The notes under the pieces are model-generated. The model saw nothing but the letters and a program-made list of their open reading frames with translations. It ran no database searches and was not told the DNA's origin. Of a DNA stretch of 64,000 bases, positions 23,701 to 27,081 are shown in pieces; position 1 is the first letter of the stretch; every line of letters begins with the position of its first letter. The DNA comes from Liolophura sinensis (lineage: Eukaryota; Mollusca; Polyplacophora; Chitonida; Chitonidae). The stretch covers positions 63,533,249-63,597,248 of the forward strand of contig NC_088295.1 in the NCBI RefSeq assembly GCF_032854445.1. The letters are read 5' to 3'. The translations under genes and the position numbers were made by a program.

Positions 23701-26700
23701 TTGTATTTAACCGTCACTGTGCAATATTCTATGTATTATTTACATCCTGACATTTTTTCCACAAGCATATAAATGCATATCAGTTTAGATGTTGCATCCA
23801 TGAAAAAAATAAGCAATGTGCCATCTTTGTTGGATTTCTGATTCTAATTATGCGCGCTGCAATTTCCTTCACGTTCGCGTGAATTTTATGTCGATTTACG
23901 TAAATTAAGCACAAGAAGAATTTCTACCTCTTTTGTGGCGAAATATATAGTGTAATAGCAGTGTAATAGCAAAATGTAATAACAAAAGTGATATCTAACT
24001 AGCAAAACTAGACCATTTTCGAGAGAAAAAACATAAGTAATACTACAATCAATTACAGTTATTAATTAAAGTTCTTGAAAAACAATTCTTACTGTGTTAC
24101 ACACATGAAGCTTTCCGAAGAAACTTACTTCTGTATGCCCCCTCCCCCCCTCCAGAAGGATAAACTAAACTAAAAGCCAATCTGCTGACCTTGAAGATGA
24201 AGGTCTCATTGAAGACGGGATTGAGCGTCTTGCGGTGAACCTTGGTCTCATATTTCTTCTTCTTGTCTGGTAGGAGGTAGACCTTGACATAAGGGTCCGA
24301 GGTGCCGGACATGTCCATGCCTGGTAGGTCTGCTGCTTGGATCACCCCTACTGACAGCTGGTAACACATGGGCATCGAGAGTTCAGCAATACCAAAGTCA
24401 CAATACGCAAACTTAACAGGTTCATGGGATAGGAAATGAATGAAGGCATGCTTCGTGTTCAACGTCACACACATATGAGGATTAGGAGTGATTAGGTGTG
24501 CGCACATTTACTGTGTCTTCTTGTGGCAAGGCGAGTCAATGCCAACCAAGTGCTGACGTCACAGACGTATCATGTCAAAGATACGAAACATGACACACTA
24601 TACTGACACCAGGCCAACCAGTCTTTTTCCTTACTCTAATCTCTCAGTGCTCAGTGCCAAGTCAGGCAGCAACAAGTGCCATTTTTAAATTCCCGTTTCT
24701 CCCGACATCGAGGCTGACACTCTAACCATAAGGCCACCAAAGCAGTTACACATGTTCTGGACCGTTTGCAAGCGTACCTTATAACAGGTTGCCTATAAAC
24801 ATTTGTCCTTTGTTTTTAATTATTTTTTTCTTGATTTTTAAAAATCTCATCCCCTAAATGATCAAATATCGAAATCAAAAGTTTTTATGGAAATACAAAT
24901 TACAAGCAATGTTTAAAAAGGCTATCATTTGCATATGCTAATTTGAATCCATCACAATGGATTAAACTATGACATATCGAAATCACCAGTACATATATAG
25001 TATATGAATCAAATATATATTCCTAGGCTTCTCTTAACATCTTGTCATTGGTCAAAGTCCATGTTCTATTCATTAATTTTTTTTTATTTTGCACACTCTC
25101 AGCCTTCTTACCTCCCCTTTCTGGAAGTCATAATCTAATGAGAACTGGAGTTTGCCCAGTTTGACCTCTGACTTTGTGCTCTCCGCATCCTCATTGTCCT
25201 CCATGTTCACATTCAGCTCCTCCAGGTCAGGCTGCACCTGTAACCAAGCCAATCAATTAGTAACATATACCGCTACTAAAACAACAGGAAACCTACTACT
25301 TTTCCCCTCCAGCGCCGTGAAACTGGCATTAGCCTTAATTAACACAGACTTTATAGTCTCAGATTCATAACTGTTAGCTGTACTGTGATACAGGTGATAG
25401 GATGTGATTTGGACTAACACTAAGGTCAGAACTAAGGCCACAAGTTCAGACAAAGTTCATGCTAAGCTCAAGACAGCTTTGGAGCTTGAGTTTTACGTCA
25501 GGTTATGTGATAACATACTTACTTCAATTTTATAACTATTTTATAACCGTACCAGGTCTGGTTATTTACTTCATGTACATGACCATTTTTAGCAATTCAC
25601 TATTTCATTACAACTATACATGTACCTAGAATTCATCACATTCACCACAAAGGCTGTTAAGTCTTCCTTCTGTATCACAGTGTCAACTGGTTCCCTTCAT
25701 TTTTACCTTTTCTTTATAAGCATTTCCCAGAATAGCCACACTCTTCAAGTCAACTGTTCCCTTAAGGCCTTTCTTCCCTTCCTTCTTTTTTCTCTTTTTA
25801 CAGCAGCATCTTTTACAGATACAGAAACAGCAGCAGAGCAGAAGTAACAGGGCCACAATGCCAATAGTGATGGTGGCCCAAAGTGGAACTGAAACAGAGA
25901 ACATGGGTCAATGACTGACTGATTCACAGAAGAACAGAAGTAACACAGTCACAATGCCAATAGTGATGGTGGCCCACAGTGGAAATGAAACAGAGAACAT
26001 GGGTCAATGACTGACTGATTCACAGAAGAACAGAAGTAACACAGTCACAATGCCAATAGTGATGGTGGCCCAAAGTGGAACTGAAACAGAGAGCATGGGT
26101 CAATGACTGACTGATTTACAGAAGAACAGAAGTAACACAGCCACAATGCCAATAGTGATGGTGGCCCACAGTGGAACTGAAACAGAGAGCATGGGTCAAT
26201 GACTGACTGATTCACAGAAGAACAGAAGTAACACAGTCACAATGTCAATAGTGATGGTGGCCCAAAGTGGAACTGAAACAGAGAACATAGGTCAATGACT
26301 GACTGATTCACAGAAGAACAGAAGTCACAGCCACAATGCCAATAGTGATGGTGGCCCACAGTGGAAATGAAATAGAGAACATGGGTCAATGACTGACTGA
26401 TTCACAGAAGAACAGAAGTAACACAGCCACAATGCCAATAGTGATGGTGGCCCACAGTGGAACTGAAACAGAGAGCATGGGTCAATGACTGACTGATTTA
26501 CAGAAGAACAGAAGTAACACAGTCACAATGCCAATAGTCATGGTGGATCAAACTTTAGGAAACAGGTGTCATGGACAAACTAATTGACAGTCAAAATACC
26601 CAGTGATGGTGACTCGAAAGTAAACTGAAACAGGAAACAGGTGTCACTGACAAAATGATTCACACAGTCAAAATGCCCAGTGATGGTGGTTCAGAGGAAA

Positions 26701-27081
26701 ACTGCAATAGATGCCAGCATGTAACTGCCAAATATCAGCTTAGGAACAAAAAGAAAATACTCAAACTAACTACATTTCTTTCCAAATCAATTTTCATTGT
26801 CACATTAGATCTGTATGTTAATGGTTTCTAGCATTATCAGACATCCCTGCTGTATGACATGATGACATGAAATTCATGGACTCACTGGGTAAATCGTTCA
26901 GCTTTTTCATAATATCTGCGCCTGCCTTGTCCAGGATGCTAGGTTCATCTGTCACCCCTTCTGTGACCCCATCGCCAGCAGCCCCACCTGTCGTCTCGGC
27001 TGGTGCTGCAGCATCATCATCATCACCCTCTGCAGCTGCCCGCCGTAACCTTGACCAGACATCATCAGCTCCGGGTGCCAT
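17576..27081 (-). CDS. SYT1: Synaptotagmin-1, complete coding region with alternative C2B exons
   Basis: Ca2+ sensor on synaptic vesicles that triggers fast SNARE-dependent exocytosis. Coding exons on the minus strand: 26886-27081, 25707-25888, 25112-25237, 24190-24357, 23318-23491, 22685-22802, then either 21349-21482 or 20722-20855, then 17576-17761; phases fit and give 427 residues. Order: acidic luminal segment, membrane span about 68-90 followed by a cysteine cluster and basic stop-transfer run, linker, C2A (about 154-277), C2B (about 285-427). C2A ligands Asp183, 189, 241, 243, 249 are present. C2B has Asp316, 322, 376, 378 and Glu384 where vertebrates have Asp; as I recall, Drosophila has this Glu too. 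Polybasic Lys337-340 and the RHW motif at 401-403 are kept. The luminal part has no N-glycosylation sequon and the C-terminus is short (QEVPEKN). Identity is secure. Confidence 0.97.
18660..18722. repeat. Short tandem repeat, about 22-bp unit, 3 copies
   Basis: ttacacatggttttaggtta repeats three times with one shortened copy. In intron 7 of synaptotagmin-1. Confidence 0.7.
19161..19231. repeat. 23-bp tandem repeat, 3 near-identical copies
   Basis: tctaaaccggatcctgtgac plus aaa, three times with no difference seen after the first two bases. Each copy contains the palindrome ggatcc. Confidence 0.85.
19610..19740 (-). mobile_element. SINE copy, minus orientation, 3' part
   Basis: ttgattggtgttttacactg, gtactcaagaatatttcact and cattatggtgggaggaaac match the reverse complement of the 3' half of the SINE at 37766. 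The tRNA-like head is absent. Confidence 0.75.
20722..20855 (-). CDS. SYT1: Synaptotagmin-1 alternative C2B exon 7a
   Basis: 134 nt, acceptor ttttccactag, donor gtattt. Completes the split Asp codon and encodes [20 protein letters not shown], then [20 protein letters not shown] and EQIQ. Same length, phase and borders as exon 7b, with 9 amino-acid differences. SLMLNGKR and NPYYNES make it the copy closer to vertebrate synaptotagmin-1. It is the second of the two in transcription order. Confidence 0.95.
21349..21482 (-). CDS. SYT1: Synaptotagmin-1 alternative C2B exon 7b
   Basis: 134 nt, acceptor gccttgccag, donor gtatcc. Encodes [20 protein letters not shown], then [20 protein letters not shown] and EQIQ. 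Replaces exon 7a exactly: both follow the same phase-1 junction and both end in phase 0. The intron between the two is 493 nt. Polybasic Lys run and the first residue Asp322 are unchanged; differences fall on the beta-strand around residues 327-336 and on Cys/Arg and Tyr/Phe positions. Confidence 0.95.
21913..22135 (-). mobile_element. Diverged SINE copy, minus orientation
   Basis: Contains tttgacaggtgtttaatttt, tatttcac-like and gtgggtggagg decayed 3' sequence and, further right, agagctggacttgagcatgc, which is the complement of the B-box region. In synaptotagmin intron 6. Confidence 0.6.
22685..22802 (-). CDS. SYT1: Synaptotagmin-1 coding exon 6, start of C2B
   Basis: 118 nt: 39 codons ([39 protein letters not shown]) plus the first base of Asp322. 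Acceptor tatttgcag, donor gtgggt. Carries C2B ligand Asp316. Confidence 0.96.
23318..23491 (-). CDS. SYT1: Synaptotagmin-1 coding exon 5, second half of C2A
   Basis: 174 nt, 58 codons, phase 0 at both ends. Acceptor ttcactccag, donor gtgagc. Encodes [20 protein letters not shown], then FSKHDQIGQ and [10 protein letters not shown]. Contains C2A ligands Asp241, Asp243, Ser246 and Asp249. Confidence 0.96.
24190..24357 (-). CDS. SYT1: Synaptotagmin-1 coding exon 4, C2A core
   Basis: 168 nt, 56 codons, phase 0 at both ends. Acceptor gtgttaccag, donor gtcagc. Encodes [40 protein letters not shown] and [16 protein letters not shown]. Contains ligands Asp183 and Asp189 and the C2A polybasic strand. 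Confidence 0.96.
25112..25237 (-). CDS. SYT1: Synaptotagmin-1 coding exon 3, linker and C2A start
   Basis: 126 nt, 42 codons, phase 0 at both ends. Acceptor ttggttacag, donor gtaaga. Acidic linker [20 protein letters not shown] followed by [18 protein letters not shown], the start of C2A. Confidence 0.95.
25707..25888 (-). CDS. SYT1: Synaptotagmin-1 coding exon 2, membrane span and palmitoylation cluster
   Basis: 182 nt starting with the last two bases of Ile66 and ending in phase 0. Acceptor ctctgtttcag, donor gtaaaa. Encodes [20 protein letters not shown], then [20 protein letters not shown]. The hydrophobic span is followed by nine cysteines and a basic run, the usual synaptotagmin-1 arrangement. 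Its first half and acceptor are the source of the tandem array next to it. Confidence 0.95.
25889..26710 (-). repeat. Tandem array derived from the 5' end of synaptotagmin-1 exon 2 (96-bp unit)
   Basis: Six clear 96-bp units plus at least three decayed ones lie directly upstream of exon 2 on the minus strand. Each clear unit has the exon's pyrimidine tract, a copy of its acceptor and about 50 bases of the membrane-span coding sequence, then bases that lead to the next unit. The AG of the acceptor is intact in four units (near 26079, 26174, 26270 and 26461) and changed to AT in two (near 25985 and 26371). Copies decay with distance from the exon. Read as an exon a unit gives [20 protein letters not shown] and soon a TGA stop. 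Confidence 0.9.
26886..27081 (-). CDS. SYT1: Synaptotagmin-1 coding exon 1, luminal N-terminus
   Basis: 196 nt: 65 codons plus one base of Ile66; donor gtgagtcc. Starts [20 protein letters not shown] and ends KKLNDLP. A GAT run gives four Asp followed by three Ala. The ATG is chosen because it opens the frame just after a likely acceptor (cctgttgacag at about 27104) and the length suits the family. No NxS/T sequon is present. Confidence 0.88.

What the first reader, a model, noticed from the sequence alone, without database searches (positions are those of the whole stretch)
25849..26710. Satellite array seeded by a membrane-span exon and its splice acceptor
Upstream of synaptotagmin-1 exon 2 the exon's first 50 bases, its acceptor and its pyrimidine tract recur as 96-bp units, with sequence decay rising with distance from the exon. 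Four units keep an intact AG acceptor. This is a rare view of a coding exon edge being amplified into a tandem array, and it places decoy acceptors before an essential exon.
Basis: seen in the sequence. Interest (0 to 1): 0.75.

Follow-up and report, generated by a model that had tools for sequence, protein, structure and literature searches.

The report
Exon-edge minisatellite in chiton synaptotagmin gene
In a chiton, the start of a coding exon of a nerve-signalling gene, together with the splice signal in front of it, has been copied over and over into the neighbouring intron; this is a real and tidy example of a type of repeat already described in lancelets, and its effect on the messenger RNA is untested.

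Summary
The array is real. On the minus strand, the last 38 bases of intron 1 and the first 58 bases of exon 2 of a synaptotagmin-1-like gene recur as six further 94-96-bp units (91.7-93.8% identical to the exon copy), followed by two or three decayed units of about 77-bp period. The array spans 823 of the 997 intron bases. Four of the six good decoys keep AG and two read AT; two decayed copies also carry AG. The genome matches the published assembly of the chiton Liolophura japonica. The kind is known: "mirage" minisatellites, tandem copies of intron-exon boundaries, described in amphioxus. My searches showed none outside lancelets. None of 80 sampled coding segments of this genome was scored as another case. 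Most likely it arose by tandem duplication plus homogenisation and is tolerated, with splicing still using the last acceptor; read-through from any AG decoy of the good set meets a stop after 25 residues. A role in splicing is possible but untested. Verdict: new member of a known kind, apparently in a new phylum.

The parts
26886..27081 (-). Coding part of exon 1 of the synaptotagmin-1-like gene (65 codons plus 1 base, phase 1)
   Evidence: Open frame from ATG at 27081 to the donor GTGAGT whose G is 26885
25889..26885 (-). Intron 1, 997 bases, 823 of them within the span of the array
   Evidence: Donor G at 26885 and acceptor G at 25889
25707..25888 (-). Exon 2, 182 bases, coding the membrane span and a cysteine-rich stretch ([30 protein letters not shown])
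   Evidence: In frame with exon 1 and open to a GT donor
25831..25926 (-). Unit 0: the true acceptor copy (38 intron bases + 58 exon bases)
25927..26022 (-). Unit 1: decoy, acceptor lost (CAT)
   Evidence: 89 of 96 identical to unit 0
26023..26118 (-). Unit 2: decoy with intact AG, identical to the true site from -12 to +35
26119..26214 (-). Unit 3: decoy with intact AG, identical to the true site from -12 to +7
26215..26310 (-). Unit 4: decoy with intact AG, identical to the true site from -16 to +27
26311..26404 (-). Unit 5: decoy, 94 bases, acceptor lost (CAT)
26405..26500 (-). Unit 6: decoy with intact AG, identical to the true site from -12 to +7
26501..26711 (-). Decayed units of about 77-bp period, with AG at 26625 and 26702; the outermost (26669-26711) is marginal
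   Evidence: TRF 26557-26704, period 77; alignments and shuffles; AG positions

Best explanation
It is a mirage-type minisatellite: the 3' splice site of intron 1 (branch-like TTGAC, pyrimidine tract, AG) and the first 58 bases of the membrane-span exon of a chiton synaptotagmin-1-like gene were duplicated in tandem inside the gene. An older set of about 77-bp period decayed; a younger 96-bp set of six units was kept alike by unequal exchange or gene conversion. The array is tolerated because only the last acceptor is followed by the rest of exon 2 and its donor, so exon definition favours it. Any transcript that uses a decoy and reads on meets an in-frame stop and would probably be removed by nonsense-mediated decay. 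Shown: the anatomy, the AG status of each unit, the reading frames, the sharing of variants among units. Inferred: the order of events, the exchange mechanism, the use of the last acceptor, the decay of mis-spliced RNA, the lack of function.
For: Array and units. One match in the whole genome to the array stretch, so it is not an evident dispersed satellite (that search skips very common words). The four sites where unit 0 differs from all six decoys while these agree lie at +38 to +55: 4 of the last 21 columns against 0 of the 75 before them, Fisher p 0.0018, post hoc. Amphioxus mirages likewise show AG/GT in many but not all units and cluster edges left out of homogenisation. Frames: from each of the four AG decoys of the good set the stop comes 25 residues after the exon 1 codons; from the AG-less units 1 and 5 it would come after 25 and 19; the AGs at 26625 and 26702 also lead to stops. 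Exon length: the true exon is 182 bases, extended ones 374, 470, 566 and 756 for units 2, 3, 4 and 6. Minisatellites are common in this window: the listed arrays of period 10 or more cover 14.4% (rows, summed).
Against: No RNA data, so use of the last acceptor is not shown. No related species was compared. None of 80 sampled coding segments was scored as another such array, so a freely running neutral process would have to be infrequent here. A fourfold higher-order pattern among units is not significant: 480 of 5040 orders reach it. The two N-terminal exons gave no synaptotagmin match among PDB sequences and no Pfam family over its cut-off; their place in the gene rests on order, strand and frame.
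Confidence: 0.85

Rival explanations
1. The array is a splicing rheostat: decoy acceptors divert a share of transcripts into stop-carrying extended exons, so that copy number tunes synaptotagmin dose.
For: Four decoys match the true acceptor from -12 or -16 to at least +7, and the TTGAC branch-like motif does not vary among the seven units. The stop is in frame from each AG decoy of the good set. Human ABCA7 has an intronic VNTR whose units begin with a donor; retention of one unit in RNA leads to a premature stop.
Against: Two of six good decoys have lost AG, as could happen without selection. Decoy-extended exons would be 374 bases or more. Amphioxus mirages are reported not to disturb splicing.
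Confidence: 0.07
2. Single units serve as cassette exons: from a decoy AG to the GT at the unit junction is 57 bases, phase 1 at both ends, adding 19 residues (a second membrane span) in frame.
For: Computed for the four AG decoys of the good set: length 57, open into exon 2 in each.
Against: The donor is TCT|GTGAAT in three and TCT|GTAAAT in one, poor against the metazoan consensus (recalled). The other four GTs tested in each unit shift the frame. A doubled span would upset topology (inference).
Confidence: 0.03
3. Assembly artefact: fewer copies, expanded in assembly.
For: Not checked against reads; coverage of the published assembly is 14X.
Against: HiFi reads averaged 8,347 bp, about nine times the array, and the seven units differ at 14 columns.
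Confidence: 0.03
4. A satellite from elsewhere invaded the intron and the exon edge.
For: The window is rich in minisatellites.
Against: Only one genomic match to the array stretch; the exonic part is in frame with exon 1 and codes the membrane span.
Confidence: 0.02

Closest known systems
Mirage minisatellites of amphioxus (Adh3, troponin C, globins BflGb6 and BflGb9, PGBD5): PMC3087553, PMC3902484 (passages seen)
   Same: Tandem units that span an intron-exon boundary, AG/GT in many but not all, concerted inside and distinct at the cluster edge; [quoted passage not shown]
   Different: A mollusc, not a lancelet; 96-bp units; the array spans 82.5% of its intron (823 of 997); a membrane-span exon.
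ABCA7 intronic VNTR of humans (PMC5954066, passages seen)
   Same: Intronic array whose units carry a splice signal.
   Different: Donor signal, 25-bp units, measured effect on splicing.
Intron gain by tandem genomic duplication (PMC4974935, search listing only; model for mirages in PMC3087553)
   Same: Duplicated exon edges as raw material for new splice sites.
   Different: No new intron shown here; the array lies in an existing one.

Membership tests
Mirage minisatellite | Tandem array with minisatellite-sized units | tested here: met
   Period 96, 7.5 copies
Mirage minisatellite | Unit spans an intron-exon boundary | tested here: met
   38 intron + 58 exon bases; BLAST hits
Mirage minisatellite | Splice signal kept in many, not all, units | tested here: met
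   AG in 4 of 6 good decoys
Mirage minisatellite | Units homogenised, edge unit left out | tested here: inconclusive
   Four private changes of unit 0 cluster at +38 to +55, p 0.0018 post hoc; no outgroup
Mirage minisatellite | Length differs between alleles or cells | not testable with these tools
   One match in the assembly, no second allele found
Mirage minisatellite | Normal splicing is not disturbed | not testable with these tools
Array of alternative exons | Each copy has its own good donor | tested here: not met
   For the four AG decoys, the only frame-keeping GT tested is TCT|GTGAAT or TCT|GTAAAT; its weakness is judged by a recalled consensus
Array of alternative exons | Copies show coding constraint | tested here: inconclusive
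   Among units 1-6, 5 of 38 intronic and 5 of 58 exonic columns vary (2 of the latter are one 2-base gap); too few to tell

The most novel reading that the evidence does not exclude
The decoy acceptors are used at a low, copy-number-dependent rate, giving stop-carrying or membrane-span-doubled synaptotagmin transcripts, so that an unstable minisatellite sets the dose of the calcium sensor for transmitter release in single animals or even single cells.
Probability: 0.06. Interest if true: 0.8.

Novelty: new member of a known kind. Interest (0 to 1): 0.38.

Why it matters
It places a mirage array, so far reported from lancelets in the papers I found, in a mollusc. That would make mirages a general by-product of minisatellite birth at exon edges rather than a lancelet oddity, and a source of raw material for intron growth or gain. 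It is also a natural test of how the spliceosome picks one acceptor among several almost identical ones.

Tried and rejected
Amphioxus as the source was the first idea, recalled from the mirage literature. A GFP-family search of the genome found 0 matches, but it rang in none of the 14 control genomes either, so it decides nothing. The assembly figures then fitted Liolophura japonica, and eight matches to a molluscan haemocyanin domain agree.

A higher-order period was considered from alternating variants; agreement at lag 4 is 0.70 (21 of 30), but 480 of 5040 orders of the units do as well, so it is dropped.

A possible second case, L028, was looked at. Its array (625-1480) stops 20 bases short of the matched C2 segment (1501-1692), on the donor side; it overlaps the last 13 bases of the open frame 1468-1713. 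By eye the exon ends before the array, at GAG|GTTTGT (sequence), so I did not count it; that donor is not proven. L033 and L034 show one whole-exon duplication from both sides, also not counted.

Paper searches that gave nothing more: minisatellite with 'intron-exon boundary' (0 papers); amphioxus minisatellite terms (5 papers); VNTR and acceptor terms (2 papers, one used); chiton with minisatellite (8 papers, the 6 listed all on Theileria); boundary-duplication terms (10 papers, of which by title and abstract start only the two amphioxus papers concern boundary arrays). A PDB search with the joined N-terminal exons found no synaptotagmin. Pfam scans of other open frames of the window gave no match over a cut-off.

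Full report
What is there. Tandem Repeats Finder gives a 96-bp array at 25831-26546 (7.5 copies, 94% matches) and a 77-bp one at 26557-26704 (1.9 copies). The gene is on the minus strand. Exon 1 codes 65 codons plus one base and ends at a GTGAGT donor (G at 26885). Exon 2 runs from 25888 to 25707 (182 bases) and continues the frame into a membrane span followed by a cysteine-rich stretch. A downstream exon matches synaptotagmin-1 C2A (best E 4e-41 with a two-C2 chain), and further C2 exons lie beyond it. The assignment of exons 1 and 2 to this gene rests on order, strand and frame: the PDB search with both joined found no synaptotagmin, and Pfam gave no family over its cut-off. The motif [13 protein letters not shown] in the open frame at 25073-25252 looks like synaptotagmin 1 by recall.

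Units. Each unit has 38 intron-like bases and 58 exon-like bases. Unit 0 is the true one. Units 1 to 6 are identical to it at 89, 89, 90, 89, 88 and 89 of 96 aligned columns. Units 2, 3, 4 and 6 keep AG; units 1 and 5 read AT. The AG decoys are identical to the true site from -12 (units 2, 3, 6) or -16 (unit 4) to +35, +7, +27 and +7 for units 2, 3, 4 and 6. The TTGAC branch-like motif, its A 19 bases before the last intron base, does not vary among the seven units. Beyond 26500 the units decay: local alignments to unit 0 score 61, 46 and 29 against shuffle maxima of 27, 32 and 27 (0 of 500 shuffles reach the score in each). The outermost copy is marginal by BLAST (E 0.18). So decay comes as a step, not a gradient. 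The array spans 823 of 997 intron bases if the outermost copy is counted.

History. Fourteen alignment columns vary among the seven units. Four set unit 0 apart from six agreeing decoys, and all lie at +38 to +55; none of the 75 columns before them does so (p 0.0018, post hoc). A simple reading is that the acceptor and the first 37 or so exon bases of the true copy exchange with the array, while the end of the repeated stretch does not. The decayed copy next to unit 6 carries the decoy state at these sites (three in the alignment, the fourth in the sequence), and the older copies read GACTGT where the first two fall (sequence). So the decoy state is old, but without an outgroup I cannot say whether the exon or the founder copy changed. 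A higher-order period was tested and not supported.

Consequences. Read from any of the four AG decoys of the good set, exon 1 plus the extended exon gives 25 residues after the exon 1 codons and then a stop; the extended exons would be 374, 470, 566 and 756 bases. The AGs at 26625 and 26702 give stops too. A 57-base cassette to the GT at the unit junction would add 19 residues in frame, but its donor is weak (consensus recalled). The expected outcome is use of the last acceptor by exon definition (inference).

Species. G000 has 609,464,459 bases in 632 contigs; the published Liolophura japonica assembly has 609,495,693 bases in 632 scaffolds (passages of PMC11068029 seen). Of the nine large contigs whose lengths I saw, six (C1, C3, C7, C8, C9, C12) equal a listed scaffold to the base, for example C1 with 96,433,062; three (C6, C10, C13) are 3.3 to 5.4 kb shorter than one. 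That assembly used HiFi reads of 8,347 bp on average at 14X, so a 0.9-kb array should be spanned, though I saw no reads.

Base rate. I took 80 loci around matches to C2 (30), ion-transport (30) and protein kinase (20) domains, the best-scoring of 78, 110 and 138 listed matches. Direct repeats touch the matched coding segment or 40 bases around it in 3 of 80: one array just outside the matched segment (L028, see Tried and rejected) and one pair of duplicated whole exons seen from both sides (L033, L034). I scored none as an exon-edge array. Taking 78 as the number of informative segments, the upper 95% bound is 3.8%. Limits: true exon edges may lie beyond the 40 bases, some matches lie in large open frames, the best-scoring matches are not a random sample, and L011, L033 and L034 lie in this same gene.

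Known kind. [quoted passage not shown] its RT-PCR suggests regular splicing. PMC3902484 (passages) adds PGBD5 and cites troponin C. The original Adh3 paper did not come up in my searches and I have not seen it. In the searches I saw no mirage case outside lancelets; the library lacks most subscription papers. The human ABCA7 VNTR (passages) is a related case on the donor side.

Verdict. A real, clean exon-edge minisatellite, a new member of the mirage kind and, as far as those searches go, the first seen in a mollusc; no evidence yet that it does anything.

Noticed in passing
20710-20859 and 21337-21495, minus strand: Two neighbouring exons code alternative versions of the first part of C2B, 78% identical over 103 bases, each after an AG: probably mutually exclusive exons. 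Such exons in invertebrate Syt1 are mentioned in PMC2823689 (passages).
   Followed up: partly
60868-61516: A 36-bp array is open over 200 residues on both strands; no Pfam match over a cut-off.
   Followed up: partly
2278-8966: Large minisatellites (periods 32, 62 and 49, about 50 copies each by TRF, the last two overlapping) lie close together; the listed arrays of period 10 or more cover 14.4% of the window.
   Followed up: no
37134-37475: An open frame runs over a stretch of undetermined bases, a gap or a withheld piece.
   Followed up: no
G000 contig C99 (L001, L002): COX1 recurs seven times at about 15.5 kb spacing in a 108,685-base contig, and once in C632: probably a head-to-tail chain of the mitochondrial genome made in assembly.
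   Followed up: no
G000:C8:37880506-37891931: Eight matches to a molluscan haemocyanin domain in a row on the plus strand.
   Followed up: no
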